Assembly: GCA_023078555.1 (NCBI GenBank)
Contig: CM041198.1
Coordinates: 1,662,800 to 1,726,799, forward strand
DNA from: Ulva prolifera
Lineage: Eukaryota > Chlorophyta > Ulvophyceae > Ulvales > Ulvaceae
Length of the DNA: 64,000 nt
Reading direction: 5' to 3'
The notes below the pieces were generated by a model. It saw only the letters and a program-made list of their open reading frames with translations, did no database searches and had not been told where the DNA came from. Position numbers and translations under genes: made by a program. The stretch's first letter is position 1. Every line of letters begins with the position of its first letter. Shown in pieces: positions 4,067-47,915 of the stretch.

Positions 4067-4067
4067 C

Positions 4068-15560: not shown

Positions 15561-15562
15561 AG

Positions 15563-19108: not shown

Positions 19109-19117
19109 GTAACCTCT
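19109..19117. repeat. Target-site duplication, left, of the KDZ element
   Basis: GTAACCTCT is repeated exactly at 47907-47915. Both copies directly abut the outer ends of the long inverted repeats. Confidence 0.9.
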
Positions 19118-19282
19118 AGTCATGTCTCCCGCTAAACGGGGGTCTCCCGGGTACCCAGCCGACACTAACTATACAACATGACGGCCCGGCCCGGCAGGCC
19201 CCAGCAGTTGCTCTGGGCAGGTCTGGTCACGCCAACACGAACTGTACAGCTGCTGCCTCCAGAACGTCCCAAACACATCAGT
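19118..19282. repeat. Left terminal inverted repeat of KDZ element
   Basis: It matches the reverse complement of 47751-47906. The main difference is a few extra bases in a GGCCCGGCCCGG run of the left copy. Confidence 0.9.
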
Positions 19283-19810
19283 ATGGCATCATGATTGCTA
19301 TAGTATACTGATGCTTGTGATGGTGCAAGTTACGGCGTTGCATGCAGTCGACCGTACATGTACGCATGTACGCATGTAGCGCTCCGCTGCACATAGCCAC
19401 TGCTGTGCTACATTCTTTTGCATTATGGTAACTTCGTTGACACATATTGAGCACCTGGGGTGCTGACATTTCGCCAATTATCGGCTTTCTATGTGTGGAG
19501 TCCAGACTGCATTTACTCGGCATCTTCAGATGCGGAGGTTCGCCCAAACTGTCGACATGTATTTGACAGAGTGTTTCAGACCGTGCAAGGTGCTCGGTAG
19601 CGACATGGCGGGTCCAATAGTGATTTTTTTTGCAGCGCTCTTGATGTATGATGATGATTGCCGCCTGGGGAAGTATGCCTTGCATCTAGAGCCTGCATAA
19701 GTTCGTTGCTCTAAATTTGCTTTTGTCTAGCATGAGTCTGGAGCATTTAGTCCTCTTGCATCGGGGAAAACTGCATTAGCAGCGGAAGAATCAATCTGCA
19801 CAAGAGCAAG

Positions 19811-22800
19811 ATGTTGCGCCGCACTAGAATCAAGCCACCACCAAAGTTGCAACCGTTCGACTTTGGCTCGGAAGGTTTTGTTCAGCCAGAAGATAGAGAG
19901 GCTGATGTTGCAGCAGTTCAAGAGGACTTTCAAAACATGGACATTGTACCACAGGTGGAGCAGCCTGATTATGAACCAGACTTCCCAGACCATGACATTC
20001 ATTTAGACGATGCAGACGACCACATTCTGCCAGCCTTGCAACCCAAGGTGATGCTGCAGCAAACCATCATACACGATACAGACGATGCATGGTTGACGAA
20101 CAAACTTCGAGACGAGAAGGTGAGACGCTCGGTGAGGGTATTGCAAGTGGATGAGAACCGACAAATCTTGATACTTATGCCATCACATGACCAGCGCGCA
20201 CGTACCATCGGGATAGCATCAGGTCACAGCCTTTCAGGAGGGACACAAAAAGCTAGGAAAAATCCATTTTGCTTTCTGAAAATTCGTTTGTTGGCATTTG
20301 AAGATGGGGCTTTTTTCTGTTCATGGTGCACCAACCCGGGGTGTGAACGAAGTTCAGCAGTTCAAGAAAAATTTGCAGCAGAAGTCATGCGCGAGTTGCA
20401 CATGGGCAAACAGTATGCCGATACATTTGGTGATGAACCTCCTTTGTGCCAGTGTGCCAATGCAGTTGTGCATCTGCTCTGGGACTCTGTTGGTGATGTC
20501 GCAGACATTAACCAAGATGACTCCATGGCTTCATTTTACATGGAACATGACCCGTTCAGTGCGATCCGAAATTACACTACAGGGCGATGCGTCATGCATT
20601 GTGCCGTTGCTTTTGCGCATGGTGATCACAGTTGAATCAGCGATGTTATTGTTCATGGCAATCCATCGATGTGCTATCGTTGCAGAAGTACCACAGCGCA
20701 CAATTGCCTTCGGAGACCATTTATACAAGATTGTCTGCTCAAGTGGGCCAGACGCCACATGGGGTGTCCTTCGCAAGCTGAAGCAACCCCGCCGAGATAA
20801 GCTGTGGGAATGCTTGGTTTGTGACAGTGTGTTCTTGTTCCATCGTTATTGCTTGCACAAAGGATGTAGTTCTTCTTGTCGTGCATCAGTGCATTGCCAT
20901 GTCTACACGTTGTTGGTCCGCTGATGTTCAGGGATGAAGACGTCATGCATCCACTGTAACGCGGCAGATGGCGCTCCAAAGGGAGCTGGTCTAAGTGAAG
21001 AGGCATGGAAGAGGGAGCTAGACGAATTTCTCGGGGAAGATGGCAATCGCAGGAGGACATGCATTTCGAGCGCTCATATCCCTGAGGACATCCACAAAAG
21101 TGAGAGGTTTGATGATTACATGAGTATGCAGCTTCCATTGCTATATTTCTTGCAAGTGGTTACAGTGCATCCTCTTTGTTTTGTGAATGTTGAGCAGATG
21201 TCCTGCTTGCCTGCAGGCCTGCGAAAATCGAAGCCATCGGTATTCTATGCTAGCTCAACATCGAAAGAGTGCCCACGTTGTCATGTTCATTGCGAGGAGA
21301 AGAAGTCGCATGCTAAGTTGTTCTGCATACTTGAAGTGGAAGACATCACTATCGTCGATTATGTGTGCCCTAGTCAGTGTGGATACGCTCAACGTCTAGA
21401 TGGGGGCGAGTACTGCATGCTACGGAAGCAGACTACCAGATCTGCAGCATTGGGCCACTATGAGGCCGTCTTCACTTGGGAACTTTTGTACTACATGCGT
21501 GATCAAATTGAAACCGGAGTATTCTATTACTCCATCCTCAAGCAGCTGATGAAATTCTATGAGAGATCACAATGGAGGGAAATCCAGCTGTGTGGGCTTC
21601 AAAGCTTATATTCAATCTTGAAGGAAGCTTTCATGGACTTCATTGACTTGATGAAATTGCCTTTGAATCAGCGGTGGTGTACCTGTGAAGGGGACCACTT
21701 GATTGCAGATGGTGTGACAGTTGCCACGCGACGAGGCTCCATGAATTTCAATGGTGACTGGTACCCAAAGGTACAGTTACAGGGTCAGCCTCAGGTCAAA
21801 GCCCTCTTTGGATCAAAACACCAGGATCGATTTGCTGTGACAGACAAGACGGTGCGCACATTGTTACGCCCCTTGACATCCACGGAGGGATGCCATTATG
21901 CCCAAGTGAATGAGCTGCGTGAAGTGTGCAAAGAGTGTCATGGAGGCATGAAACATTTGTTCGGTGACAACTTCCCATCACCTGCAATCCAGTCTTTCTT
22001 GGATGAACTTGAAACTGGTAGTTGGCGCGTGCCCAAGTGGTCACGTGGTTTCCTCAGAGAAATCTCTGCTGAGTCTCCAGCCTTGGCCATTCTGCCCGTG
22101 AAAGACATACCTCTGCTTCAGCACTGGAATGCATGTGTTCAACAACGTTTGCGTATGATGCCGGAAACAGATCAAGCGTGGGATCGTGAAGACGATGCGG
22201 CGCTCAAGCAATCCTTACCTTGCTTGTGGGAATGCCTGACAACAGTGCACGACAAGGCTTCGAATAGGGAGGAGAACATGTTGTGTGATGCCTTTGCCAG
22301 TCTGGTGCAAGAGCTGATCGAGGTGTGCAAGGCGACCCTCAGCCCATCGTGTCAGCTAAGCCTAGCTGGAAGTGCGCTGCCAGACTTGCAGATGTCACTT
22401 GTAGATGTCACATGTGCAGGCGAGCAAACGGTGCTGTCTACCTGCCAAGGCTCCCGCCGAGCTTGACAGTTTCCAACCACAGCAAAAGCTACGCAAATCG
22501 AGGCGAAGGTCTCAACACATGCCTTGTCGTTCAGCAGATGAAGCAATGTACAAGAGTGGTGTCCATGTGGGCCATTTAACTGAGGAGCAGGCGCAGCGCA
22601 ATGCAGGGTTGCGGCGCATGCCGTTGTTTGCCGCAGATTCTAAACTTAGCAACAAATCTGAGCACGCCTGCACCAAACACAAGTATAGCGCAGGAGCTGT
22701 CGGTCCAGGTCTAATGGTGACGTTCCCCGCAACTTGCATGATGAAGATTGTTATGACTGGGCTATACTCATGGTACATGTATGGGGCATGCTAATACAAT

Positions 22801-23519
22801 TGTGTGGTATAGATTGTCTGGTGTGTGCTCTGCAAGTGCGCAGTGGCCTGGTCCCTGATGGCAGATTCAGAGTCACCGGCCACATTGTTCGAACTGCTTT
22901 ATGTGTTCTTTCCTGCGAACCAGTCCATGCGCATTGTTTATGACAATGGTTGCAATTTCTTGCAATACGCATTGAACAGGGACCCGGTGTGGGCAGCTTC
23001 GAAAAGAGTTTTTGTGGACGAACTTCACGCCAAAGGGCACACAAATTGTGCTGCTAGCTTCGATACTGGTGAGGTTCTCCATGGTTTGGCATGATCCCTT
23101 GCATGGCTGTGTATTTTGTTCACCCAAATTATTTTGTTCACCCCGCTCGATTCAGGCAGACTGTAGATCGATAGTCTTGTCCACGTCACCTGCATGCAGG
23201 GTCATACAAAGACCACCAGAAGAAGAGCAAGGATCCAATTATTGCAAATCCAAGTTTTGCAGAGCAGGAGAATGCACTCCTGAAGAAGCTGAAGTCTTCG
23301 GCAGTTCATATGCGACAGACGCACTTGCTGTGGTTGGTCCGGTTTTTGTTGTATAGACAGTGGCGAAGGAAGAAGCAGCCATTTCTACATCGGAATGCCC
23401 AATCTCAGGCAAACTGCATCCGCATACAAGAGCCGTTCATTGGGCCAAAGCCATCACAGCCTCATGAAGTCGTTCACATATTAGGGATCGTGCCGCCTGA
23501 AGATGCTGTTCAATTGTGA
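19811..23519 (+). CDS. KDZ-family transposase
   Basis: Six exons can be read: 19811-20621, 20686-20826, 20932-22322, 22420 to about 22755, 22837-23068 and 23200-23519, about 1,077 residues. Introns of 64, 105, 97 and 131 bp fit in phase; the fourth donor is unresolved. The N-terminal third is acidic. The splice at 20827/20931 assembles the cysteine cluster CLVCDRMKTSCIHC; a second cluster reads KECPRCHVHCEE...CPSQCGY. The catalytic region carries SESPATLFELL, then VYDNGCNFLQYALNRDP (GAC at 22942), then VDELHAKGHTNC, and the tail reads NPSFAEQENALLKKL. These are the hallmark YD..C and H..GH..C blocks of KDZ transposases, which act on DNA in the nucleus. It starts about 530 bases inside the left inverted repeat. 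A TGTAA signal lies at 23566. No internal stop breaks the model. Confidence 0.85.
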
Positions 23520-23572
23520 TAATGATGATGCCTCATATGCATTTGCATTGTCAATGCAAGCAAGCTGTAAAA

Positions 23573-24038: not shown

Positions 24039-24941
24039 CTAGTCTTTCTCCTGTGCAGGCGTCTCATCCAAGTGCCCCCCAGCAGGCAGACATTGTAATG
24101 CAGTAGATACCTTGCTTCGCTGCCTGACAGCATTTGTGACTTCCTTCAGAGGGGATCGCTCACCCGCAGTGCGCTTCCGCACTGGACCCCACCGCATAGA
24201 CTGTGTAGAAGCCCCAGCACAGCTGCCATCACCATCATTTGGCGTGAGCACATCTTCGCGATGTGCCACTGGCACCTCAACCATGTGTCGCCGAGCGGTT
24301 CGCCGTTGACATCTGCCCCACTGCTTCAGGGGCTTCTTGTTTGACAATGTAGATGCCCCAACACCATGGACCGCATCCATTGCCTGTGCTGCAGAACCTC
24401 CAATTGCTGATGGTCGCTCTTCCATGTCCGCATCAGACGCCGCAAAATCAAGCCGGATCTGATGATGTTTCCTGCACGTTGGCTTGGGGCGGCTGACAGG
24501 TGCAGCAAGACATTGTGTTTGAGCAGGGGTAGACTTTGACACTGACGGCACATGTTGGTGTTTCATATGTGCTGCAAGCTGAGTTGGGATGTGCAAGCTT
24601 CCAACCTCAATCACCTCTTGTTCAGTCAATTCAGATCCAAAGGTGCGATCAGGCTTGCTGTGCCTGCAAACGATGCAAGTGTGAGGCTTACTGCTCTTTG
24701 AGAAAATTGTATACATACTGCCGTGATCACAGCCGCAAGTTAATCAATTTTCGCACCAGGCCTTAGCAAACTTATCGCATCCCTCCAAAAATGCACGCGC
24801 CTCTTCATTGCCAATTGCTTTCAATTGCATCCGAGCAGCATGGACCCAGGAGTATGGTGGAAAAATGTGCGCCATATCCGAAGCTTGTTGCGAAGCAGAA
24901 TCATCTGATTCGATTGTGGTTGCATCGAGGCTTGTGACATA
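24039..24941 (-). CDS. KDZ element second protein, 3' part (unknown function)
   Basis: This is the C-terminal part of the minus-strand KDZ gene, cut from its upstream exons by the CACTA insertion at 24942. The exon 24941-24757 encodes YVTSLDATTIESDDSAS...EEARAFLEGCDKFAKA. A possible 39-bp intron (24718-24756) then leads to 24717-24039, which contains the Cys/His pattern HTCIVCRHSKPDRTF followed by HIPTQLAAHMKHQH and then a basic, low-complexity tail ending PAQEKD. The intron is unusually short, so the exact join is uncertain. The Cys/His spacing suggests metal or nucleic-acid binding, but I do not recognise a family. It converges on the transposase gene, about 520 bases from its stop. Confidence 0.55.
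24939..24941. repeat. Target-site duplication of CACTA element, left
   Basis: ATA directly precedes CACTAGGAG and is repeated at 44292-44294 directly after CTTCTAGTG. Three-base duplications are the known signature of CACTA transposons. Confidence 0.85.
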
Positions 24942-24942
24942 C

Positions 24943-25500
24943 ACTAGGAGAATGGCGACACTCTGAAACGGATCCGGGTGTCGTCCGCCAGATTACGAAA
25001 GTCCGTTTACTCTCTGATACCTCTCCGATGTCATCGGATGCGAGCAGTCGGATGGACCTTGGACTTTGGCACCGAATCATCCGCCGACCCATGTATAATC
25101 TGCCGGACTGTGGACGTACCTTCCCGCTGCTGCTTGCCTTCGCATGTCCGCGACGGCTGCCATTATACGAGGTCATTTCGGTGAAAGCCCGCGCTAACAG
25201 TGGATCGAATGATACTATTGGTGACTTTGTTACTATACACATAGTATCTGGAAACGACTGGACTGGACACGGTGCAGGTAGACGTGGACCCATACTCATG
25301 GCAACTGACATCGACTTTGGGCAGGAGACGTAGCGGCAGGAAGCTGGAGGCAGGCTCACAATAGCGGTGACTTTCTGCATCGCCCAAGATAGCGTTGGTC
25401 CGTATTTCAGGCTCGGCAGCAGTCCATGTAGTGTTGGTCGTCGCCCTGTGAATGGTGGCCGGAAAAGCGTGCACATAGGTTCCTGGATGCGGTGGTCCAG
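24943..25500. other. Left subterminal region of the CACTA element, no gene
   Basis: Rich in CGGAT, TCCGAT and CCGCC words related to those in 43960-44290. In En/Spm elements such subterminal repeats bind the element's own regulatory protein; here this is inference. No coding frame is supportable. Confidence 0.6.
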
Positions 25501-25764
25501 AGTGGCCATTCGGCGAATGGCCACTCTGTCCGAGTTACGTCATCATGCTCCAGGTAAGGCGTGCGCTCGCCCTCCTGGACACGAATGCATGTGATGATCC
25601 AGAGTGGCCATTCGCCGAATGGCCACTCTGACGGGGTGACGTCATCGTGCTCCAGGTAAGGCGTGCGCTCGTCCTCCTAGACGCGAATGCATGCGCTGGT
25701 CCAGAGTGGCCATTCGCCGAATGGCCACTCTGACGGGGTGCTGTCCTCGTGCTCCGCGGGAGTG
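25501..25764. repeat. Palindrome array 1: 102-bp tandem units
   Basis: Three 25-bp palindromes have arms AGTGGCCATTCG and CGAATGGCCACT around one central base. Their centres are at 25513, 25615 and 25717, spaced exactly 102 bp. The central base is G in the first and C in the other two. The linker repeats TCATCGTGCTCCAGGTAAGG and GCGTGCGCTC words. The third unit decays after about 25764. The plus-strand gene starting at 25973 follows. Confidence 0.93.
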
Positions 25765-28288
25765 CGCAGGTGCCGTTGCAATCGGGGCGTCGTGCTGCAT
25801 GAAATGTACGAATGGAGGATTGTGTGTCTGATACGGTTAATCGCTGGCGGTCGTAGCTTACCTGGCATCGCAATTCGATACGGTCGAAGTGACTTGGAAT
25901 TCCGTTGCAGATCTGCGCATCTCGTCACCAGTGACCGCTTTCGCTAGTAGTATATTGACATACGTATTAGCGATGGATCCACGCGTTGCAGCACTGGTCG
26001 CAGGACTGCCAAGTACCCAGCATGGGCTGACTTCTGCGCGCAGCGGAGACTTGCTTGTCGGTCGCATGCGCACTAACCGAATCCCAGTAGTGGGTAGTTT
26101 GATTTCTAGAGACGGGCGTTTCACTGACCGAGCCCGCGTCGGCACCAATAGCGGTCCAGCATGCGGGCCTGGGGTGGCTGTGTGGTGGGGCCTTGGGGAG
26201 GTCCTGCGAGACAACGTGGTGGTAAGCCGGGGGAGTGAGCTGGAAACGGCCAAGGGAGTGGCCACTACTACCTTTCTCGTGCTCTCCGGCTGGCTCCACG
26301 AGCAGGACATGTTCGTGTCCTCGTGGGAGGGCAAAGGGAGGACCCCTGCTGGGTGCACGGAACCCCTGCGGTGGAGGCCTCTGCTGGGAACGAAGGAGGT
26401 GTGTGCCTCCTGGTAGGCTGGTGGTAGAACTGCTGACCACGCTCTACTGCAACTGCCTGTTTACTGCGGAGGGGCGTAGCCTGACTAAGGAGTGGGTTCA
26501 GTAGTCAGTGCATCCAGCTATGCAGCATAAGGTCACGGGCCACGTCTCTGAGTCAGGATTCCCCAAGACTACAGTCACGGAGGAGCGAGATCCGGAGCTC
26601 GCCGAGCGGTTCGATATCCCACATGCGAAGGTTGGGGAGAAGCGCAAAGCCGCCGACCCCCCGCCTCCTGACGGTGTGCTCACTCCACGTCTGCTGCCCT
26701 TTTTTTTGGGAGTCATGCAGTCCGTGTCCACCGCGGGCGTGCCCAAGGCCACCGCGTCCATGTATAAGGTCCACCTGTGTTCTTGGGCGTGTCCCAGAGG
26801 TGATGGAAGGGGCCCGCTACAAGAGGTGTCGGTGCAGTTTTCTATTGCCCCACCCCCCGGCACGTCGTGTGGGCATGGGCTTCTTTCATGTCTGGCCTCT
26901 CCCCGCATCGTGTCAAACTGTGGACTGCCGGAAAGCGGACACCCGCGGCGGTGGGGGGGGGGTCCGCTAGGAGCAAGGAGAGACCAACCTCCAACCTCCC
27001 TGACGGCCTCAACCCTCTGGTGGCGTGGGTGCTGTATGAAAACGCCCACTACGAAAGTCTGGAGGGCTTCATTGAAAAGAAGCTCGATCCTTCTCAGGCA
27101 ATAGCGCGGCACATTGGGGACCGGTGTCACGCGCTGCTGGCCAACACAAATGGGGTCCCCTCCCAGGTGGTGTACCAACTGACGTCGGGCGCGTCGGTAC
27201 TAGCGGACATGCACGTCTGGCACTCGGACCTCATCGAGGCGTTCGTGCGTTCCTGATGTTTTCTATGATTCCGGTGTGGTCAGGCATGGCTGCCTGTATG
27301 CTTGTGCGTTGTCTGGCTCGGCAGTGCATTCTTTCCACCACGCATGCATGAGTGTGGCTAGGCGGCCTCTGATTCCTCCTACACCTCAAGCCTGCCCAGT
27401 CACAGGCCTGTGAACGATGAGTGTAACATGCCTCAGATCGTGCAGGATATGAAGTTCCTCGGCGAGTTCGTCACCACCCTATACAATCTAGCCCCCTGGG
27501 TGTTGGCGTATGCGGCGGAGCATCCGTTGATGGATTGGTCAGAGGTGCGAGTCGCCACTGTACAGAACATGTTCTGAACATCCCTTGGGCGGCGTGACAC
27601 TGTGGTGCTACTTGGCCTAACCCCCCATGTCGTTCACTCCTGGGTCTGGCCGTGCAGGGAGACAGGGTAGCCCGAGCCCTCCGTCCGGCGTGGCTTTCTG
27701 TCAAGTCATTCTACTCCCACATCATGGGAGCATGTTCAGGGCTGCGGTCGTCTACACAGGACCTGGCGGCTTTCGCCAGTAGCGGGGTCCACCTCTTTAT
27801 GCATGCGTATGTGCGCCTCGTTGCTACAGCAATGACAGGCAACCCTGGGGCGCCTGACCTAGAAAGGCGGGGTGGAGAGGACATCCCGGCGCTGGAGCCC
27901 AGTCTCCTTGATCCCGCCTTTGCCGCCATCCTGGTGTGCACGGTCAATCACAGCTGTGCGTCGCCAGCCTGTCATGTACACCTGTATATGGAGCTGTAGT
28001 GTCCTGTTGTATCCCCCCGGGTGGGTCAACACTACGCTTTGCAGTCAGTGTGAACGCCTGAACCCCGCGGTGCATGCAGGCTTGGTGAAATCGGGGTACG
28101 GTCTGCCTGTCAAGAGGTTGGCTGATGCGCTGATTCCATTGTGCCCGCCCCACACGATCTGGCACTGGGCGCTCAGGAGCTGGCGGCACCTGGCCGTGGC
28201 GCAAACAGTCCCCGCTGCGAGCAGTTCAGGCAATCCCGTCTCCACGCCCGCCGTTCGCCTGAGGCCAGTGACGTTCCCGGATATCAAG

Positions 28289-28296
28289 GACTGGGA
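28289..28296. repeat. Target-site duplication of the 1.4-kb element, left
   Basis: GACTGGGA is repeated exactly at 29730-29737, directly outside the inverted repeats. Confidence 0.9.
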
Positions 28297-29729
28297 AGGG
28301 GGTCAACCACTCCCGCTACATGGTGGGCCCACCTACGGCGCGCAAGATCGGCTGCGATTTTGGCCGCTTGGGGAAGACTTTGGCTATTGTCTATGTCGAA
28401 TGGGCATTCGTAGTGTGCCACCTCGCTGTTGGGGAGTCTCCCCATCGCAAACCCGGGTTTTGTCGAATTTCCGCGCTTTTCCCCAAACGAGGGTCGTTCA
28501 TGCCCAAACGTGTGCCATTGCATCGAGAACACGTAGCACACTCAAAATATGCTATGATACTCACCGGGTTATGACATATTGCTTCTGTCACATTTGTGGG
28601 TAGCGTTCGGTGAGGCACTATTCAACGGCGCGCTAGCTGATCGGGCCGACATTGCGGGGCGCTCACGCACTGGTCAGGCGACATGTCAGCATTGATTGGC
28701 AGCATATTGCGTGTTGAATATTGCGTGTTGAATATTGCGTGTTGAAGGACCCTGCCTCAATTTTATGTGCAATGGGGAATGCCCATGTTTTGTAATGCAC
28801 CGTCACATGTACACCTTATTTCACAGCATGTCACTCTAATGATACCGCAAAATTAATGCGCATCAATGATGTATCCACCGTGTATCCAGCATCCACCGCT
28901 CGATTGAAATGATTCATTAGTTTACAATGGCGAGGCATGATCACAGCAGGCCAGAGTAACTCAAAACGTCTCCAGTGACACTACGCAAAAGATGACCTAA
29001 GCATACCTACGCTGACGTCTTCGTTGAGAAGTACACACCCAGCAAGTGGAATGCAAAGCTCCGGATCATGCTCCATCACAAGGGCCTGTCAGGCCTGTCA
29101 CAGGAATCAAGATACTCATGCGCCCCATGCCGATATCAAACATTCTACGAGAGTGACGATCAATCAGGATCAGGCAGTGAAGCTTTGATATCTCGTGTAT
29201 AATTCAGTTTGAGCCACTATCCCATGCTACACACAGATCGCAGGTAGGACGCCCTGTCCGGATATCCAGAGATTCGGACCTATCCAGCATTATTAGAGGG
29301 ATTAATACGACTCAAATTGCATAGCGTGTGTCACTATGTGGCCAGCCTCCAGGAAACTCAGCCGTATACAGCTTCATGAAGCCTCACCAACGAAAAATAT
29401 GCACATACAGCCTTGCGATCACCAACAAGAGCTTTAAAGAGCTCATTTTAAAGGCGTTTGGGGACGCCTGCGAACGATTGGGGAGGTTTGGGGAGGCGAC
29501 TGAGCGTCTGGGCCGGTTGGGGAGCCAGCGTCGCGAAAGGCCGATTTTCCCCAACCAGACGAGCCATATGGACGATAATGGCCCATTTTCCCCACCCGAG
29601 TGAGATGACACACTACGAATCCCCATTCAACATAGACAATAGCCAAAGTGTTCCCCAAGCGGCCAAAATTGCAGCCGATCTTGCGCGCCGTAGGTGGGCC
29701 CACCATGTAGCGGGAGTGGTTGACCCCCT
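28297..29729. mobile_element. Non-autonomous inverted-repeat transposon, 1,433 bp
   Basis: Both ends read inward start AGGGGGTCAACCACTCCCGC. The inverted repeats extend about 128 bp (28297-28424 and 29602-29729) with roughly six mismatches. GACTGGGA, 8 bp, is duplicated on both sides. The interior has no transposase; it has many CCCCA words, short frames, and a 14-bp triplet repeat at 28704-28745. Eight-base duplications are usual for hAT, P and Zisupton-type elements. The termini lack the CAGGG start typical of many hAT elements, so the superfamily is open. Its own enzyme must come from elsewhere. Confidence 0.92.
28704..28745. repeat. 14-bp repeat, three copies
   Basis: ATATTGCGTGTTGA occurs three times in tandem inside the 1.4-kb element. 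Confidence 0.9.
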
Positions 29730-30023
29730 GACTGGGATTACGCCGGCGCTGAAGAACTCGCCAAGCAGTCCATCGCCAAAGGGATGCAGAGTCCAGCCTG
29801 CTACAGGTGCATACCCCATCGATGTCTGGCCCTACGGCTGGTTGCCATCTGCATCAGAACCTGCTACACGAACGTAATGTCATAGGCGCACACTGCTGTG
29901 GCCACCTCCTATTCTTGTATCAATTGCTCCATCTTAACTGCTGCAAGTGTGACTAGTGCAACAGAGCATGCATGTGCCCTGTGACTCGCGCCGTGCGCTG
30001 CGTGGTGCGCGGCCTTATCGGCT

Positions 30024-31613: not shown

Positions 31614-32416
31614 TCCCATTTCATTATTCGCAGCTGATCACCGTGCAGGGACGCAACGTTGCCGAGTGAAGCCGGACGACGAAGGGGGGCTGCTATGAGG
31701 AGTGCTGGAGTGCGGATTAGGGTGGGGTTGGAGAGGGGGGGGGGGGGGGGTTTCCGTAGAATGTTGACTCTGAAACCTAGCAATGCGAACGATTAATGAG
31801 TAGCACGTACAACAACGAGCAACATCAGCATCTCATGTGCCATTCCACGTGTACATGTAAACAGACGGAAGGTTGTCACGCCTCAGTGCGCTTTCTTAAC
31901 ACAGGTGGCTGTGGCCTTTCGTCGCAGCAGACACACTAATAGTATACAGCTACCCAACACTGCACTACAATATCAACGCCGAGGGACGCCTGTGGCCACA
32001 GTTACACTATCGCATGACTGCTCAGGCGTGCCGTGGTGTCCCGCCACCTAGAAGCCGCCCCCTGGGAGCCTCCTGCGCCAGTCCCCCCCCCTAGCAAGTT
32101 CCCGCCCCACCTGCCAGCTAGTACAATGGGCAACCCTGATGCGAACACCCGCCGACAAGGCGCACAGCGGGCGGTGCATTGAAACCGCACGGCTACCGCC
32201 CCTGCACGCCATGCGGGGATACTCAGATCCGCGTTTTCAGCGGAACGGCCATCAGCTTGTTATACTGTTGACTCAGGGTTGCTACCAGTGGCAGCACCTT
32301 CTTCATGAAGGCGTCGTACCCCGCCTGAAGGTACCACTCCCTGCATAGTACCGGAATCATGTAGGAGTTGTGCCGTCTACGGTGGGGTGGAGGCGAGACC
32401 AGCGCCTATGCAATGA
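31614..32416. other. Gap between convergent genes of the CACTA element, no gene
   Basis: It contains a long G run near 31737-31750 and no coding frame with family resemblance. It holds the 3' ends of the plus-strand repeat gene and the minus-strand protease gene. Confidence 0.5.
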
Positions 32417-35400: not shown

Positions 35401-35594
35401 TGACCTGGCGTCCATTTCCCCTTGAGGGCCGTTTTCACGAATCTATAGAACGACGACTCGTACGAATTTCTACTTTCTAATGTCGCAATCAAGGTCCTCA
35501 GGTCCCCGTCTGAAATCATACTGTCTAACCAACTCGGGGATGTAAGCAGTCGGGCGTGTTGTACCAATCCTATCGCGTCGCTGTCATCCAGCAT
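32417..35594 (-). CDS. Ulp1-type (C48) cysteine protease of the CACTA element
   Basis: Three exons: 35594-33512, 33400-33207 and 32881-32417, about 913 residues. The N-terminal 550 or so residues start MLDDSDAIGLVQHARLL and become Pro/Gly/Asp-rich and disordered. The protease domain follows. TSWLDSTHVDY and HIFEQICVLVPVPRNGHWAL carry the catalytic His (codon at 33540-33542). SFFDSLKD carries the Asp (33357-33359). QQPNGHDCGVYTAMF carries the oxyanion Gln and catalytic Cys (32843-32845). The triad assembles only across the introns. The first splice (GTGCGC...GTTGCAG, phase 1) is well supported; the second donor (GTAACG) is the best in-phase choice. Ulp1 proteases cleave SUMO-type peptides; plant CACTA and Mutator-like elements can carry such genes, role uncertain. 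It lies just downstream of the transposase gene on the same strand. Confidence 0.82.
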
Positions 35595-35852
35595 GTATTA
35601 CATTTAACTATTAACATATATTTAATCGAACCGCAGTGCCGGTATCAAGATGTCGGAGCCGGCACCGATGCTCGAAGCAGGTGCGAAAGTGGCTACACGC
35701 GCTCCACGTCTGGCGAATGACTGTTGGCTGCTGCCGATAATGCACCGGTGGCCATACAGTGCCGGAGACTGGGCGCCATCTTATCTGCTGTGGCAGGTGC
35801 CGTATTGCAACCCCATGGTATCAAGGGGAGAGCACCCGATGACCCCAGCGCT
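35595..35852. other. Spacer between transposase and protease genes
   Basis: About 260 bases with an AT-rich patch near 35600-35625 (TTAACTATTAACATATATTT), which on the minus strand lies just upstream of the protease ATG and may be its promoter. Confidence 0.45.
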
Positions 35853-38800
35853 TTACACAGTTCGGCCAGAAGCCTTGTTCGCTGTGGCCCAATACTGCAC
35901 ATTTTGTGCACCCCTCCGGACTGGAACTAACTGGCATGGAACTGCGTCCAAGTCTACGACGTATCTGCCGGCATATGCCCGAGACCCCCTGTTTGCACCC
36001 GCCACACCGAAAAACTCGGGGGGACGTTTCAACACGGGATCTGGGGCGCGGGCTCCCGGGGTGGCTGGCAAGGTGCAATTATACAGATCAGCAACCCCCA
36101 GGTACAATGGGTTTGGTTCCGCAACACATGACACGCAACACACGCCATCCCGGGGCTGCAGACACGCCCTCGTGAAATGCTGCAGTTCCCCGACGAAATA
36201 CGTCACTGTCCCGCCACCCCCGTCCCCATCCCCCCCAATGAGGTACCTCAAGAGGCACCACTTGTTGTCTTTCTTCCCTTGCGTACACTGTTGCGCGCAG
36301 CTGAACATGTCTGCAACGCGGGATTGCATCTGGTGGAACTTCATAAGTGTCACTGTGCCCTCACGGCGAGCCTCATCCACAGTGCCATCCACCTTCAGGC
36401 CCAGAGCTCGGTGGATGGCCACCCGACGTGCATAACCAACCCCCAGGCGACTGTGAGTTGGCCAGCCCTCGTCCTGTAGGGAGTCCTGATGGAAGAGGAG
36501 GTACGGCAACCCTGTCAGATTATCTCCCACAAAGTCCAGGGGGAGGACCGCCGCAGTCTCAGACTGGGCAAGGGCCCTGCCCACCCCCACGACCCTGCCG
36601 GTGATCCGGTCACTGTCAATTGGTTGCTCCCCGTCAGCGGATCTTCCATTGCGAGTTCGTGCCCGCCGGCGTTTCTCAGTCGCTATGGCATCTGACAGTG
36701 AAGTCATGGCAGCAGGCAGTGAAGCTGCATCATGCAACAGCCGCATACATGTGCGGCGCAGCAGTTCATCGCTCACATATACTTGTTCAGGGCAACGAGT
36801 CGATCGATACTTGATCAGTCTCTTCAGGAGCTGGACCATCCGCTCGATCCAGAATTCAAGACTGAAGAAGGATGCACCGCAGCACCTCACCTGATCCGGT
36901 AGGTGACTGGCCGCCAGATGCAGCTTGTACGTGCTGAGAGCAGCCCCTTCAAACGTCTCTTCCGCCAGTTTGGCGTACTGCAGCAGCAATCGCTGAGCTT
37001 CCGTGATTCGGGCCGGTGTGTGCTGACCCTCTTCATATCTGAGAAAGTAGAGGGCCCCTGCTCGCAGGAGCCCCCACGACTGCTCAAACACGCTGCGTAT
37101 GCGTTTCTCGGAGGCTTTCCACGGGAGATCGTGCAGGAGGTACAGCGAGAATGTCTCGGTGAAGGCCAGCCAGTCTTCCATGAGCCAGCGACTGCGGTGC
37201 CTACGCAAACAGTCACCCTGACTCAGACGGGATGCTTCAACAGGAGTGCACATGGTTCCTGTGTCCAAGTAACAGTCCGAAAAATGGCGCAGCCTCGGAT
37301 GCGAGCAGGGTGTGCAGGCGATGGGACTGCGCACTTGGTGATGTCGGTGTACACCTTCTTGAAAAGAGAGGTCTGCATGATGTGGGGCGCTCTGGCAGCT
37401 ATCGCCTTGACGACATCCTCTGGCAGTCGGAACAGGGCCCGGAGGCCAGTCAATGGCGCCTTCTTGGACTTCTTCCGGCCCAGGGGAGGGAGCCACTGGT
37501 TCCAGAAGTCCATGAGCACACCGAGCAGAAACACGTGCGCCACTCCGAGCCGGAAGAAATGGCAGGGACTGCAACGCCACAGCGTAATTCATAATCAACT
37601 CCAGACTCAAGGGCGAGGCAGGCAGCAGCAGGCTGGGGGTGCTCGTACTTGAAGTAGGAGAGGAGACTGAACAGCGGAGAACCTTTCACCCCCAGTAGCT
37701 TGTACTCATCTTTGGCGAGCTTGGCCCTGGACTTCGGTGTCTTCCGGTCGCAATAGCGTTTCAAGGTTGGTGCGTGGACCTGCATTACCACAGGCCTGGC
37801 CAGGGTTACCACAAGAAAAGAGCCGTATCACCAACGACGCTTGTTCGGTGTCAGAGGGGTTGGCAAGATGAGTTGCGGCGCACAGAGGGGGGGCAGGGGA
37901 GTAGGCCGCATGTGCACAGTTTGCATTCAATGACACTGTAGGTGGAATTGCACCTGGGCAGCGATCTTGTCGCCCTTTCGGCCCCTGGCCAGGATCTCTG
38001 CCGCCGAGTACTTCAAGCGGTTGTCCGACTCCCAGGACGAGGGCTGCACATGCCGGGGCTCAGACCACGCGGTCCGCGGGGGGTTGCCACCAGTGTCCGG
38101 TTGTACACTCCCAGGCACCATCCGGGGGTTTGCAGCCGAGGATGCTGCTTCTTCCTCCGTGGTGAGTGATTTCCCTTTCAGAGGCCCGTCGGCATAGCAG
38201 GGCACGGGCTGGTGCAGAGGGTGATGGTGTCCCATCCACCTGTGTGGCATGCATGATAGCAGTTATAAGCAGGACAGGTACGTGAGACAGCACTAGCAGG
38301 AAAGAGATTACAAACGTAAGTGAACACCCCGGACCTGACAGTGTTGGAGGGGTAATCCCACACGCCGTTTTGGGCACATCTGAAACATGCCCTCTTCGCT
38401 GTATGGCCGATGCTGTTGGTAAGTTTCTCCAGCCATGGGATATCCCCCTCCACACAGCACAGCACCGGCCACACGTGCAGTACCTCGCCCCCGGGCAGTG
38501 TGATTTTGAGTGCCTCACCCCCAGCTCCTGCACTCCAGCCATCACGTGGTGCGGGGGCCAGACACTACGTGATCGGGAACTGTACACATCACCCGGCAGT
38601 GACCAGGAAGACAAGGTGAGTGCGCGCCCGGATCATGCTTCTTGAAGAACGCCATCACGGACTCCAGAATGCTGGCCATGCATGTTGGTTCGGATGGCCC
38701 CTCCACCACTCCAAGGGGAATCCAGGCCACATTGGTACTTGAGAGATGGGGCGGCAGGTCAAGCAGGCGGATCCCCCAGATTGTGACACCGTGCTGCTTG

Positions 38801-40367
38801 TTGACGTACAGCTGGGCCCCGTCCCCCCCTGCAGGAAGCGACTGTCGGGACACGAGGCAGAGGGTCTCAATTCGCGGAGTTGCATAGGCGTGCCGATGCG
38901 GTGTGATAGCCACCTGCTCAGATGAGGAGGTGGAGCGCACCGAGGCTGAACAGCAGGACAAGCTCCCTATGCTTTGGCTTCAGGATTTTGCCCCCACACG
39001 CCAGGTTGAGGGCCTTTCCAGCCGGGGAGTTGAGGAAGCTGCTTTTGTCTTTGACAGCTGTTGCCCTGGCTTCCCGTACGCTCGTCAGCAGCCCCGGCTG
39101 CAGGAGGAGGTCTTTCAGCGAGGCTTCTTCGCCAAAGAAGAAAGCTGAGCGCACAGGGACACCCTTCCCTGTGAGATCGACATCAAATCGCTGTTGACAA
39201 CAACCTGGGGTTCCACAGGTGTCCGCCAGATGCTGGTGATGGTCACCCGGATCAAGTGGGGGGAACAAGGTCCAGCATTGGGGACAAACGTGGCGCGTTA
39301 CAGAGGAAACAGGCGGGACACCCAAGACCGCCTTGACGAGGTGGAAGGAGGGAGGGAAAAAGTTTCCATCGGGTAGCAGGAGGTAATGTATGAACCTGCA
39401 CCACGTGTCGACGACCACGTGTTGTATGCGGAAGAGGCTCTTCAACTGGGCAATCCACATGCACACTGTGAGGACGGTGAGGGCGCTGCCGGTGTATATG
39501 TGTTTCATGCGTTGCTCATGCCACCAGGCGCCCGTGCCCTTCCGGGCCCCTGTGGTGGGGTCCGGGCCGTCGTCATCCGCCTCCTGCATGTGCAACGATC
39601 AGGCGTGTCCTACGGAGGAGTACGAGCTGATTCACAGCATTGCATGTAATGGAAGATGTGGACACACCTCGGGTTCGTCTGAACTGTAGTCCGTCTCTGA
39701 TGAGAAGGCAATGGAGTCGGCGTCTGAGAAGTCTGAGTCGTCGTCTGAAAATTGTGCGGGGCCCTCGGCGTGATCGCTTTCGGACGGTGGGGGCAGCTGT
39801 ACACAATCCCAACACCTCGGAGTTGCATTGGGCGAGCAGGCAAGAAACAGCTGAGGGACAGGAGCGCTGACACCCATGGCCATCGTGATCACGAGCCGCT
39901 GTCATGCCGATCTGCATCATGATCAGGCAAACCGGGACTTAGCACGGTCAACTACCGAAGGTACGCACGTCGAAGAGGTCGTCGGAGTGGGCAGGCTCAT
40001 CGGGGGGACCCCCCATGTCTGGAGGTGATGGGGATCTCCCAGAGGGACCGGCCCCGTCGTGTCTGCCGCTGCGGTCATCATCGGCAGTAGCGGAGGTCGG
40101 GCCAGCGGCTGGCCTCGAGTCTGGGCCCGCGTCGTCGTGTCCACCAGCGGCTCTCCGCGATGCGGCTGCTGCACTCAGTCGACGGCTGCAAGGACCGTGA
40201 TGGTTTTGGGCGGTGTTGTGCCTCTGAAACTTCTCACCACAGCCTAGACACTGGTATTTAAACGGTTCCTTCCCCGTCGGCTCGGGAGGGACCAGGCGCT
40301 TACAGTTCGCTTTGGCAACCAATTCGTTCACCTCCGCCCTCTTCAGTCTATCCGCCGAACCGGCCAT
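35853..40367 (-). CDS. CACTA transposase (Tnp2 / Transposase_21 type)
   Basis: A multi-exon minus-strand gene. The first exon (40367 to about 39960) starts MAGSADRLKRAEVNELVAKA and has a C2H2-like finger (CLGC...HNTAQNHHGPC). Acidic linker exons follow (about 39800-39680 and 39590 on; FSDDDSDFSDADSIAF). The core reads in order: WCRFIHYLLLPDGNFFPPSF with a CPQC/CGTPGC cluster (39595-38920); GVTIWGIRLLDLPPHL (about 38790); VEGDIPWLEKLTNSIGHTAK with ACFRC (about 38440-38370); GVKGSPLFSLLSYFKYEH (about 37690); AHVFLLGVLMDFWNQWL (about 37540); SRWLMEDWLAFTETFSLYLL (about 37180); HLAASHLPDQVRCCGASFF (about 36900). These match the order of Tnp2-family transposases. The C-terminus has YFVGELQHF and VADLYNC, as in domains next to Tnp2. 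Several exon borders are unresolved, and the finger exon could be a separate gene. Confidence 0.8.
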
Positions 40368-40704
40368 GGTAGCCAGCCGGACTTAAGCATTCTTGTGAAG
40401 AAGTTCAACGATAGCGCGGCCTCTGGTGTTTGTCGTCCCTATGATGGCATTACGTCCCACGAAGACCTCCCTGTCGCATCCCATGTTCGCCCTGACGCCA
40501 CAATCCCAGGCGAGGCGCCGGGGTATCGAGGCAGCCAAACCTTTGAAGGCGGACCGCGCGACGACGCTACATCGGCATACCATTCAAAGCACGGAGCAGC
40601 AAAGCATGTGCGAATGACGCGATATGTTAGCTGTGCCTACGATACGACCATCCACAGTACGGGCCATAGACGTGTGTTAATTCCGCTTTGTCTAATCATC
40701 CACC

Positions 40705-41608
40705 ATGTCCAACCTGCAGTTCACGTTCCTCCGCGCGGCGCCCGTCGTCATCGAGAAAGAAGTTGTAGATGACGCAGACAATGGAGCAGGGATGCTTGAC
40801 GTGCTGGTCAGCAACGTGTGGAGCAGAGGTGCCGGCGTCGACGGGTTGACTTTGACGTCAACCGTCGACAAAGACAGCTCCGTTGATATCGACAGTGTCG
40901 AGAAACTGATGACGTGCGTAAGGTACTTCTTCAGGAAAGGCACTATCGCTGGACTGCTGAAGCCGCCCGTGCTGGTGAAGGCGCTGGGCAAGGGCAGAGG
41001 GAGCGTGGGACAAGCGTCGGCACCCGTCGGCACTGCACACTCCACAGCTACGGCCTTCACTGCGGACCCCGAAGCTGACAGGCGGTGGGAAACGATGAAG
41101 GATGCGGTGATGATGTGGACGGAAGGGATGAGATCCAAGGTGGCGGGAATGGCCGATGCCCACACGCAAGGCAAGAAGGTGCAGGGACTAGTGAACCTGG
41201 CCCTCCCAGACGACGAGAAGGTGTGGGTCGGGAGTATTCTAACGAAAACACAGGCGGACGCACTCGGCAAAGCTGCACATGGGGTACGGCTGCTGTCTCC
41301 GACTAACAACGTGATTGCAAACTGGGGTCCACTACCACCCCGTCAGGGCCACGAGATCCCATGCCACCGACTGTCAGTGTTGTGTCTTGGCGCGTCAGAG
41401 TCGCCATTCGCGGTCAGTATGCAGTGACGGGTATCGTGTACAGGTCGGCAAAACAGGTGAAGCGTACAAAGCTGCGACTAATATCAATCATGCTTTCTAC
41501 CGCCAGCACGCCCATTTGAACGCCGTGACCAAAGAGTGTGCCTCTGCTGATGCTCGGGTTATGCCGTGCCTGTTGCCGTGCCCATGCCGTACCTGCTGCC
41601 GTGTGTAA
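40705..41608 (+). CDS. Unknown protein of the CACTA element
   Basis: Exon 1 runs from ATG 40705 (MSNLQFTFLRAAPVVIEKEV) to 41310. An intron GTGATTGCA...GTGTACAG leads in phase to 41444-41608, giving about 256 residues. The protein is mixed helix/loop with a basic middle (KALGKGRGSVG) and a helical segment (RWETMKDAVMMWTEGMRSK). The last exon ends with a Cys-rich tail (CLLPCPCRTCCRV). No family is recognised. It is divergent from the transposase gene, with 337 bases between their starts, so the two may share a promoter region. Confidence 0.5.
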
Positions 41609-41638
41609 CGACTGTGAAGTCAAGAGACATAGAAGAAG

Positions 41639-41728
41639 AGATCTGTCGTCTACCCTTTAAGGTTCAGCTGCTTATATACTATGAGATCTGTCGTCTACCC
41701 TTTAAGGTCCAGCTGCTTATATACTATA
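41639..41728. repeat. 45-bp tandem duplication containing a TATA-like word
   Basis: AGATCTGTCGTCTACCCTTT and the following 25 bases occur twice (41639-41683, 41684-41728) with two differences. Each copy contains CTTATATACTAT. They could be promoter elements for the next plus-strand gene. Confidence 0.85.
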
Positions 41729-42011
41729 AGACAGCCTGTGTACGACACCTGCCACAGTGTGCTGAGCTCAGCCCACTGTTCCCCGTACTGTGACGTATCG
41801 TCACACCGTGCCCAACGGTGGCCGAGAAGGGAAGCACACAGTATCCGCCCAAACGGAGGTGACCCGATGTGCAGGAAGTTTGCGAAACGGGCGTGGGACC
41901 ATAACACGGGCCTGCGGAGGAATCCCAGCGCCCGCGAGCAGAGGAAGCTGCTCGCGGCAATGAATGTGTTCCAGAACACCAAGGCATGTCCTCCACCTTG
42001 GTCAGAGTTGG

Positions 42012-42359
42012 AGTGGCCATTCGCCGAATGGCCACTCCAGCGCGTCATGCATTGATTTTGCACTGCACGCGCCCGGAGTGGCCATTCGCCGAATGGCCAC
42101 TCCAGCGCGTCATGCATTGATTTTGCACTGCACGCGCCCGGATTGGCCATTCGCCGAATGGCCACTCCAGCGCGTCATGCATTGATTTTGCACTGCACGC
42201 GCCCGGAGTGGCCATTCGCCGAATGGCCACTCCAGCGCGTCATGCGTTGTCTCGCACTGCACGCGCCCGGAGTGGCCATTCGCCGAATGGCCACACCAGC
42301 GCGTCATGCATTGTGTTGCACTGCACGCGCCCGGAGTGACCATTCGCCGAATGGCCACT
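42012..42359. repeat. Palindrome array 2: 64-65-bp tandem units
   Basis: Six copies of the same palindrome as in array 1 (arms AGTGGCCATTCG / CGAATGGCCACT, central C) have centres at 42024, 42089, 42154, 42219, 42283 and 42347. The linker is different from array 1: CCAGCGCGTCATGCATTGAT followed by TTTGCACTGCACGCGCCCGG. Copies 3, 5 and 6 have single arm mismatches. A decayed seventh unit overlaps the start codon of the gene at 42395. Confidence 0.94.
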
Positions 42360-42394
42360 CCAGCGCGGCGCGGCCTGCATGATTCCGCACTTGC

Positions 42395-43483
42395 ATGGCC
42401 ACTGACCTGCCATTCGGCGACTGTGTTCCAACCAATGTGGTTCGTGCGCAGTTCACCGTGAGAGGAGACCGCTTCCCTATCGATAGCGAACCCATGAAAA
42501 CCCCCGAGGCCTGGGCTATGGAGGACGGTGAGTTTGTGTGCGAAGGGATCGCCAAGGTTGCTGCGGCCCGGCGCGCCATCGAAGGGACCGCTGACTCTCC
42601 CGTCCAACGGGGCAAGAGACAAAGGAAGACCGAGAAGGTACAATCTCACCACACGCTGTACTGCCCGCCTGAGGTTGGCCATTAAGTGGTACCGGGATTG
42701 TACGGGCGCCTGTGTGAGCGGCATGTGCCATCATTCGAGGCAGCCATGCGTGTACAGGCTCCTACCGCATCGAAGTCAGGAAGACGGGGCACTCATTCCA
42801 ACAGCGGACGGCGCACAATGCTCGCTGACTTTTCTCCCCGGCGGCCAGGGCTAGAACCAAGGGCAGACCGCACTGCTGATAAGGACAGTGAGCACCAGCC
42901 GGACGTGGAAGAGGTGGGTCACGATCAGATGGGTGAAGAGGAAGAGCCTGATTCTCCCCAGCGGGCAGACGATCGATGCGAGTCCCCGGAGATGGAGTTA
43001 CAAGCCGCAGCGCCGGTATGTCCTCTTATGATTTGTGCCAATTGACGCCTAGTCCGATTGTACTTGCCCCACCCATCAACAGACCAGGTGTAAAAGCGCC
43101 TGTACATTGCAGAAGTCCAACAAAGCTCTTGAGAAGCGAAAGGCCAAGGCAGAGAAGGAGGCCGCCCACCAAGCGCGTAGGGATATTCGGAAAAAGATTG
43201 AGGATTGCGAGGCTAAGCTGGCAAGGCATCAGCCCAGAAGCAAGGGTGCGAGTGTGCAGAAATTAAAACAGCAGCTTGGTGTATTGACGGTATGTCACTA
43301 CCCCGATACACTTGATCTGACCTGTGACACCAATGCCTGCAATTGTAGCACTATTTGTGTGACAGTCGCTCAGACCACGAATGCATTAGAGCCGTGCACT
43401 CATGCAGCTGGTATTGCATGCAGGCCGAGTTGTCAAAGGTGCAAGACTCCATAATTGACGACTTCCCGGACGAGGACGAGTAG
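42395..43483 (+). CDS. Coiled-coil protein of the CACTA element
   Basis: Four exons: 42395-42527, 42687-43015, 43113-43289 and 43424-43483, 232 residues, all splices in phase with strong donors (GTGAGT, GTATGT, GTATGT). It starts MATDLPFGDCVPTN. The second exon has VPGLYGRLCERHVPSFEAAM and an acidic stretch (DVEEVGHDQMGEEEEPDSPQ). The third is a Lys/Glu/Arg-rich coiled coil (NKALEKRKAKAEKEAAHQAR). The end is acidic (DSIIDDFPDEDE). Length, charge and coiled coil would suit a DNA-binding or oligomeric accessory factor, and it lies directly behind array 2, but no family is recognised. A TnpA-like role is a guess. The reading in earlier frames near 42528-42690 was rejected in favour of the GTGAGT splice. 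Confidence 0.65.
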
Positions 43484-44291
43484 GCATGCCAGTGCATTGT
43501 ATGGTTGTATTTGGGCCACCTCAGGACCATCTTGCAGCCTGTACATAGGTCCTTTGCCCGGTCCTGTCCGCGGAATGTCAGGGAGTCTGTCCTGAGGAAA
43601 TGTGTGGGAGTGTGAGCTATGTATGAATCTAGCGATGAACAAGGAAAGCACGCGCCATGTAAGCACCTACAGCATATGAATGCAGGCATATTGCCAACTG
43701 CAGCCCCGTGTTCACGTGCCTCATAACAAAGAAAACAACCACATCATGCTTCCACAAAACCGCGATCCTTCCTGCACTCCGCTTACATGTGCGCGACCAA
43801 GTCTGATCCGGTAATAACGCACATGACGCCTTTGGTCAAGCATTGCGTGTCCACAAGTGCACACTCCACGTAACCATACGTGAGTTTATCTCAAGCCAGA
43901 CGGATACATGTACGTCAAGAGGTCACCAATCCTACGGCCCAGCCTGTACTTCCCGCATCCCCGAGGCGGACGCCATACGGATCCGAGACGGATCCGAAAT
44001 TTAGTGCACGCGTCCGTAGTCCCTCCGTCGGACGCACAACGGAACCGTCTTTTCTTCCGTACATCCTCCGGTTGGGCTCCGAAGGCAGGCTAGTAACAGA
44101 AGGCGTTGCCCTGGGGCGTACCGGACGGGAATCGGAACATCCTACCTGCCTCTGCCCCACCTCCGCCACAAGTCTCCGATACTCCTAGCAACCTACGTCC
44201 GGCCTCCACCGATTCTCCGTAGGCTCTCCAACTGCCCCTCCGCACACACTACGTCAGCTCTCCGATTCACCGTGTCGCCATTCTTCTAGTG
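43484..44291. other. Right subterminal region of the CACTA element, no gene
   Basis: It contains paired ACGGATCCG words near 43977 and 43988, many TCCGAT/TCTCCG words between 44160 and 44270, and the terminal inverted repeat at 44272-44291. Short open frames here look fortuitous. Confidence 0.65.
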
Positions 44292-44294
44292 ATA
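44292..44294. repeat. Target-site duplication of CACTA element, right
   Basis: ATA, identical to 24939-24941. Confidence 0.85.
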
Positions 44295-47200: not shown

Positions 47201-47436
47201 AGCAGGTCCATCTCCTCTTCATTCACCAAGGGGGCCACAGCCTGGAACCCTTTCTCGACGCCATACTTACGGCTGACACACACCAATTCACGTTGCCCAA
47301 CTGCCTGCTTTAAAATGTATTCTGTGGCCGCAGCTTGCGTCGCCTTGCGCGCAGCTGCAAACCAGGAATGATCAGCAATGATCAGCCACAGACGTGATGC
47401 ACAATGAGACATGATCATCCATCGCGCATGACCCAA
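44295..47436 (-). CDS. KDZ element second protein, 5' part (unknown function)
   Basis: Minus-strand exons readable in order include: about 47365-47027 (ARKATQAAATEYILKQAVGQ ... ELISQFD before GTGAGC); 46865 to about 46150 after TGCAG (KYGRRQAQQTRNRHG ... SGE before GTGAGT); about 46095-45740 (SLFGTGRFDYRGDPPVP ... NLHSCL); about 45675-45390 (DDAATYDVTQLLWDSIVIHT); about 45300-45050 (KEAKMKVLDKLGYDPTQGFL); about 44910-44750 (KQAVIGKALQDVAHGRLDL); about 44680-44500 (REATEHMLNLLTCGVSD); and 44330-44295 (HEHFGPKLAAWK). There the CACTA element interrupts, and the same frame resumes at 24941. The total is probably over 900 residues. I recognise no domain. Its presence within the same inverted repeats suggests a helper for KDZ transposition. 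Confidence 0.6.
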
Positions 47437-47750
47437 TTCAATCTAATGCAATGCCTGCTTATACAAGACTCGTTGGCGTTTCAAACCGCAACACGACTGG
47501 CACACCAGAAAGCATCCCGTCGAGGCCCGCGCCCACAGTATTGTCGTCCGCATCATTACCGCTGCAATGTGGGCTCGCAGGGTCGTCTACATTCATTACG
47601 ATTCGAGTGATACCTTAACTGGGGGTAACGCTATCGTAGCTGCGCTTGGCTTCGCAATCTCTGTATACACGTCTGTAAGGACGTTCAAATTTTGTACATG
47701 TAACGAGCTGCTAAAACACTGTCGAGCTGCAAGATACTTAAAAACATGAC

Positions 47751-47906
47751 ACTGATGTGTTTGGGACGTTCTGGAGGCAGCAGCTGTACAGTTCGTGTTG
47801 GCGCGACCAGACATGCCCAGAGCAACTGCTGGGGCCTGCCGGTCATGTCGTGTAGTTAGTGTCGGCTGGGTACCCGGGAGACCCCCGTTTAGCGGGAGAC
47901 ATAACT
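47751..47906. repeat. Right terminal inverted repeat of KDZ element
   Basis: This is the reverse complement of 19118-19282 with scattered substitutions. The direct repeat GTAACCTCT follows at 47907-47915. Confidence 0.9.
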
Positions 47907-47915
47907 GTAACCTCT
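47907..47915. repeat. Target-site duplication, right, of the KDZ element
   Basis: GTAACCTCT, identical to 19109-19117. Confidence 0.9.

What the first reader, a model, noticed from the sequence alone, without database searches (positions are those of the whole stretch)
19109..47915. Three transposons nested one inside another, every boundary and duplication readable
The KDZ element (9-bp duplication GTAACCTCT, 156-165-bp inverted repeats) contains a CACTA element (CACTA ends, duplication ATA), which contains a 1,433-bp inverted-repeat element (duplication GACTGGGA). The order of arrival is fixed: KDZ, then CACTA, then the small element. Three superfamilies each left their expected signature, and together they account for 28.8 kb of the window.
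Basis: partly seen in the sequence, partly recalled or inferred. Interest (0 to 1): 0.88.

Follow-up and report, generated by a model that had tools for sequence, protein, structure and literature searches.

The report
Three algal transposons nested like dolls
Three mobile DNA elements sit one inside another in what is probably an algal genome, and relatives elsewhere in the same genome confirm both inner insertions and their order; the nest is clean and real, but nesting of this kind is common.

Summary
The nest is real. Siblings elsewhere in the same genome confirm each boundary to the base or within one base. Two full-length copies of the outer element lack the CACTA and show its empty site with one ATA. 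Four CACTA siblings lack the 1,433-bp element and show its empty site with one GACTGGGA. Duplications match in 14 of 18 CACTA pairs examined (3 bp) and in 20 of 20 small-element copies examined, window included (8 bp). The order outer, CACTA, small follows.

One correction: the outer duplication is 7 bp (TAACCTC), not 9. Siblings put one more base in each inverted repeat; the two extra matches here are coincidence. The element is 19117-47907.

The KDZ label is plausible but unproven: no Pfam model matches. Size, inverted repeats, duplication length and a conserved multi-exon protein fit; the protein motifs are recalled only. A diverged cousin sits inside another CACTA copy, so nesting ran both ways.

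Verdict: true, well documented, ordinary. Interest 0.3.

The parts
19110..19116 (.). left 7-bp target-site duplication of the outer element (TAACCTC)
   Evidence: sequence; sibling register
47908..47914 (.). right 7-bp target-site duplication of the outer element (TAACCTC)
19117..47907 (.). outer element (KDZ-like; 9,438 bp without the CACTA and one ATA)
   Evidence: two full-length siblings, L009 (9,642 bp) and L010; 76 substitutions in 9,431 aligned bases to L009
19117..19282 (+). left terminal inverted repeat, TAGTCATGTCTCCCGCTAA...
47751..47907 (-). right terminal inverted repeat, CAGTTATGTCTCCCGCTAA... when read inwards
20925..23517 (+). gene 1, candidate transposase: exons modelled at 20925-22322, 22420-22716, 22813-23068, 23200-23517; conserved frames also upstream from about 19751
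   Evidence: open after splicing by hand; 44-85% amino-acid identity per ORF to a diverged cousin, up to 92% in tblastx blocks
24042..24941 (-). gene 2 of the outer element, distal frames; one frame is split by the CACTA insertion
   Evidence: conserved in the cousin at 42-44% amino-acid identity
44295..47442 (-). gene 2 of the outer element, proximal frames
24939..24941 (.). left 3-bp duplication of the CACTA (ATA)
44292..44294 (.). right 3-bp duplication of the CACTA (ATA)
24942..44291 (.). CACTA/EnSpm-type element, 19,350 bp with the small element inside
   Evidence: termini repeated in siblings; empty site in L009 and L010
25487..25755 (.). subterminal 102-bp repeats, three copies of a 27-bp near-palindrome
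42010..42367 (.). subterminal 65-bp repeats, six copies of the same near-palindrome
35853..37685 (-). CACTA ORF with a weak DUF4218 match (a domain I recall from CACTA transposase proteins)
   Evidence: E 0.16, below cut-off
32417..32944 (-). CACTA ORF with a weak Ulp1-type (C48) protease match
   Evidence: PF02902 E 7.8e-4, 19.8 bits against a cut-off of 20.7
28289..28296 (.). left 8-bp duplication of the small element (GACTGGGA)
29730..29737 (.). right 8-bp duplication of the small element (GACTGGGA)
28297..29729 (.). 1,433-bp inverted-repeat element, apparently non-autonomous; arms about 28297-28435 and 29589-29729
   Evidence: 19 siblings with the same ends; empty site in four CACTA siblings

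Best explanation
Three cut-and-paste DNA transposons inserted one after another. First a 9.4-kb, two-gene, KDZ-like element entered host DNA and copied 7 bp (TAACCTC). Then a 17.9-kb CACTA element entered a conserved frame of that element's second gene and copied ATA. Last, a 1,433-bp element in which no gene was recognised, presumably moved by a transposase supplied elsewhere, entered an open frame of the CACTA and copied GACTGGGA. The boundaries, duplications, order and the two inner empty sites are shown. The cut-and-paste chemistry, the source of transposase for the small element and the KDZ assignment are inferred.
For: Outer element: L009 and L010 align end to end and run uninterrupted through the CACTA site. 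Its 7-bp duplication is perfect in 8 of the 11 sibling pairs whose two ends I fetched, with 6 of 7 bases in one more. CACTA: 20 of 20 fetched left ends, window included, begin with the same CACTAGGAGAATGGCGACA (these are the 20 best of 40 scored); 3-bp duplication in 14 of 18 sibling pairs examined. Small element: 18 of 19 siblings perfect, the nineteenth explained by an insertion inside it. Empty site of the small element in four of five CACTA siblings probed; the stretch of the fifth missed the site. No further large insertion is evident from sibling lengths.
Against: No profile names the outer transposase. The CACTA transposase model PF02992 does not match in the window (0 of 14 controls rang). 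No empty site of the outer element itself was found in this assembly. Four of 18 CACTA pairs lack a matching duplication (one of them 31 kb apart and perhaps wrongly paired), and so do two of 11 outer pairs.
Confidence: 0.93

Rival explanations
1. The nest is as described, but the outer element is not KDZ: it belongs to another group that copies 7 bp, such as hAT7 or Dada, or to an undescribed one.
For: No Pfam model is reported for the 756-aa spliced model or its last 290 aa at E up to 10 (the program's filters drop most matches above about 0.1), nor more than weak unrelated matches for ten ORFs of the sibling. hAT families with 7-bp duplications exist, and two Kyakuja families with 7 bp are said to have no inverted repeats (passages of PMC12730594). 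Dada copies 6-7 bp (passages of PMC3706591).
Against: Size, long inverted repeats and duplication length resemble KDZ elements that move in a fungus: 9.2-11 kb, 139-241 bp, 4-8 bp (passages of PMC12810828). The conserved core (VYDNGCNF..YALNRDP..VDELHAKGHTNC, then AEQENALLKKLKSS) resembles KDZ as I recall it. Dada targets small-RNA genes; the nine perfect 7-bp targets here all differ.
Confidence: 0.27
2. The three travelled together as one composite element.
For: Nested insertions that are fixed among multiple copies are reported for giant transposons of Ectocarpus, KDZ and EnSpm among them (passages of PMC12477816).
Against: Both full-length outer siblings lack the CACTA, and the CACTA siblings that could be read at the site lack the small element (4 of 4 readable). 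Each layer has its own duplication.
Confidence: 0.03
3. An assembly error joined unrelated repeats.
For: All three are multi-copy families. No reads were seen.
Against: Each layer ends with matching duplications at exactly the sibling termini, which a misjoin would not give.
Confidence: 0.02

Closest known systems
KDZ (Kyakuja-Dileera-Zisupton) DNA transposons
   Same: about 9-11 kb, long inverted repeats, duplication of 4-8 bp (passages); multi-exon transposases (passages)
   Different: no match to the Pfam KDZ model; 7 bp rather than the 8 bp of Zisupton; unlike the two Kyakuja families described, it has long inverted repeats (passages)
CACTA/EnSpm transposons
   Same: CACTA termini, 3-bp duplication, repeats near both ends, weak DUF4218 and C48 matches
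   Different: the Transposase_21 model does not match in the window
Giant KDZ and EnSpm elements with nested insertions in the brown alga Ectocarpus (PMC12477816, passages read)
   Same: large KDZ and EnSpm elements holding unrelated elements
   Different: [quoted passage not shown] here the nest is private to this copy among those read
Inverted-repeat elements with 8-bp duplication (hAT, Zisupton; P and Merlin: recalled)
   Same: 8-bp duplication, long arms
   Different: no autonomous partner found, so not assigned

Membership tests
CACTA/EnSpm | termini 5'-CACTA...TAGTG-3' | tested here: met
   window; 20 of 20 left-end loci fetched, window included, and the right ends fetched
CACTA/EnSpm | 3-bp target-site duplication | tested here: met
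   window and 14 of 18 sibling pairs examined
CACTA/EnSpm | repeated motifs near both ends | tested here: met
   27-bp near-palindrome 3 times left, 6 times right
CACTA/EnSpm | transposase of the Transposase_21 / DUF4218 type | tested here: inconclusive
   DUF4218 E 0.16; PF02992 not in the window, one sub-threshold match elsewhere, 0 of 14 controls rang
KDZ | KDZ transposase domain PF18758 | tested here: inconclusive
   0 matches in own genome, but 0 of 14 controls rang; spliced model without match
KDZ | target-site duplication of 7-8 bp (4-8 reported) | tested here: met
   7 bp, perfect in the window and 8 of 11 sibling pairs; literature passages
KDZ | long terminal inverted repeats (139-241 bp in Cryptococcus KDZ) | tested here: met
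   166 and 157 bp with the terminal base
KDZ (Kyakuja branch) | CA..TG termini and no inverted repeats (as described for two families) | tested here: not met
   TAGT..ACTG termini with long inverted repeats
hAT, P, Merlin (small element) | 8-bp duplication (P and Merlin recalled) | tested here: met
   20 of 20 copies examined, window included
hAT, P, Merlin (small element) | cognate transposase with matching termini | tested here: inconclusive
   terminus listings are cut short; the one long copy opened holds a retrotransposon-like insertion
Dada | insertion into small-RNA genes | tested here: inconclusive
   the 7-bp targets of the window and the 8 perfect siblings all differ and the window has no Rfam match at gathering score, but sibling targets were not searched for RNA genes

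The most novel reading that the evidence does not exclude
The outer family is a two-gene branch of KDZ-like transposons, or a separate superfamily, in a photosynthetic eukaryote: 7-bp duplication, YAGTYATG inverted repeats whose two ends in most copies read carry alternative forms (TAGTC at one end, CAGTT at the other; not so in the cousin), and a conserved second gene of unknown function on the opposite strand, beyond reach of the present Pfam KDZ model.
Probability: 0.35. Interest if true: 0.45.

Novelty: new member of a known kind. Interest (0 to 1): 0.3.

Why it matters
It is a well-documented stratigraphy: the two inner layers are ordered by empty sites, and a diverged cousin shows the opposite nesting order, so elements of both groups have each served as target for the other. 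It also fixes the duplication length of the outer family, which bears on its classification. The consequence for biology beyond this genome is modest.

Tried and rejected
A 9-bp outer duplication was rejected: outside the 7-bp core, the two extra positions match in only 3 of 16 comparisons across the 8 siblings with a perfect core, about what chance gives (my count from the flanks), and the cousin's empty site also gives 7. An autonomous partner for the small element was sought through a 4.77-kb copy at C1:11116079; it is a sibling carrying a non-LTR retrotransposon-like insertion with an ORF of 1,110 aa (named by eye from its motifs), not a partner. A further insertion inside the CACTA at 37826-41027 was considered because one sibling lacks it; from the overall lengths of other siblings (about 17.6 kb and more) I take it for a deletion there, but I did not read that stretch in another sibling. 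An empty site of the outer element was sought with 300 bases of joined flanks; only the window's own two halves matched. Whole-frame Pfam scans failed because of stop codons. The original KDZ paper PMC3918813 is not held.

Eight contig ends were fetched to look for telomere repeats; in the first and last 80 bases of each that I printed I recognised none. 38 light-harvesting (PF00504) matches indicate a photosynthetic eukaryote; 'alga' is my inference and no species was identified.
Full report
The observation. The strings and inverted repeats reported are all present at the stated coordinates. The window lies at G000:C3:1662800-1726799 of an 88.9-Mb genome in 44 contigs with 38 matches to the chlorophyll a/b-binding family, so the host is a photosynthetic eukaryote, probably an alga (inference).

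Outer element. A search with the first 283 bases of the element found 39 places, two of them the window's own ends. Four of the others form two full-length siblings: C4:6289835-6299474 (L009) and C9:1008405-1017804 (L010). L009 aligns to the window's outer parts at about 99% identity and L010 at about 94%; after alignment, 76 of 9,431 positions differ between window and L009. Both run straight through the CACTA site: CTTGTGACATACTTCC, with one ATA where the window has two. The CACTA therefore came second.

The duplication. Reading the flanks of 11 further copies of the family (those whose two ends I fetched) shows that the matching core is 7 bp, lying one base outside the AGT...ACT ends: GTCATAC, CGGCAAC, GCTGCAG, CGTGACG, CGTGGGC, ACGGTGG, CTTTCGA and AGTACGA are perfect (8 of 11 pairs), L010 has 6 of 7, and L011 and L014 fail. 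The base next to the core is T before AGTC and C before AGTT, so it belongs to the element. In the window this gives TAACCTC, and the additional G and T that made nine are coincidence. A cousin, about 66-71% alike in DNA over the longer blocks, sits inside another CACTA copy (C9:489211-513375, whose own 3-bp duplication CAT is intact); the window's own CACTA serves as its empty site and again shows a 7-bp target (CCGTTTG; one copy has changed by one base).

CACTA. Left-end and right-end searches each scored 40 places, out of 76 and 69 candidates. All 20 left-end loci fetched, the best-scoring ones with the window's among them, start with the same 19 bases. Of 18 sibling pairs whose two flanks I read, chosen from those listings, 14 carry matching 3-bp duplications. 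Near-palindromes of 27 bp repeat three times near the left end and six times near the right. ORFs give weak matches to DUF4218 (E 0.16) and to Ulp1 peptidase C48 (E 7.8e-4, just under its cut-off); PF02992 does not match here. In the outer element the CACTA lies inside an open frame that, joined across the insertion, is 44% identical to a frame of the cousin.

Small element. Of the 20 best loci fetched (window included; 40 were scored of 124 candidates), 19 have identical 8-bp flanks at the exact ends. The twentieth, C1:11116079, carries a retrotransposon-like insertion; its true ends are also flanked by the same 8 bp, GCCACGAC, so 20 of 20. That copy is also the closest: 99.9% over 936 bp and 99.4% over 502 bp. 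CACTA siblings show the empty site in four cases: L091 and L107 identical to the joined window flanks over 121 and 103 bp, L105 and L106 at 79%; a fifth sibling's stretch, L108, missed the site, and two earlier stretches of the L105 and L106 siblings (L092, L093) ended before it. The element lies in a frame of the CACTA that stays open across the empty site; whether that frame is an exon was not tested.

What the outer element is. It appears to have two genes facing each other. Gene 1 on the plus strand can be spliced by hand into an open frame; its ORFs are 44-85% identical in protein to the cousin, with tblastx blocks up to 92%. Gene 2 on the minus strand is 38-55% identical. No Pfam model names either. 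PF18758 found nothing in this genome nor in any of 14 controls, which decides nothing. From passages read: Zisupton copies 8 bp, and two Kyakuja families copy 7 bp with CA..TG ends and no inverted repeats (PMC12730594); three mobile fungal KDZ elements are 9.2-11 kb with inverted repeats of 139-241 bp and duplications of 4-8 bp (PMC12810828). The anatomy fits KDZ in general but not the Kyakuja description. The resemblance of the conserved core to KDZ is recalled from memory and is a lead, not a test. I put KDZ or a close relative at about 0.7.

Is it new? Nested insertions in giant KDZ and EnSpm elements are described in Ectocarpus, and movement of a 31.7-kb KDZ element in Chlamydomonas is cited there (PMC12477816, passages); Zisupton and Kyakuja elements are reported in Chlamydomonas relatives (PMC8226300, passages). 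Nesting is thus known. What is added is a three-layer case, private among the copies read, with both inner empty sites, and a reciprocal case in the same genome. I searched papers for nested transposon, CACTA and KDZ, any two of three, and saw only the listing except for papers named above; I make no claim that this locus is absent from print.

Noticed in passing
17819-18055: A perfect 115-bp inverted repeat with a 7-bp loop about 1 kb left of the outer element.
   Followed up: no
942-5337 and 12410-16645: Repeated blocks about 11.3-11.5 kb apart, 74-97% alike, perhaps a tandem gene duplication.
   Followed up: no
L104 (C1:11116060-11120870): The nearest sibling of the small element carries a non-LTR retrotransposon-like insertion with a 1,110-aa open frame: another nest.
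   Followed up: partly
L102, L103 (C9:491600-503400): A diverged cousin of the outer element lies inside a CACTA copy, the reverse of the nesting in the window.
   Followed up: yes
L012 (C9:4604100-4610500): Outer-family termini at three places, two of them about 20 bp apart, with one 7-bp duplication around the whole: perhaps one copy inserted in the inverted repeat of another.
   Followed up: no
24942-25480 and 43700-44291: The CACTA's left end is nearest to C1:10025993 (96%), but its right end is nearest to C1:3948189 (99%) and only 88% like the right end that pairs with C1:10025993: perhaps a mosaic.
   Followed up: no
L057 and L058: Two CACTA copies on C4 share the last 10 left-flank bases and the duplication ATA, but their right flanks differ.
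   Followed up: no
54955-55018 and 61810-61873: A 64-bp stretch repeated exactly, 6.9 kb apart.
   Followed up: no
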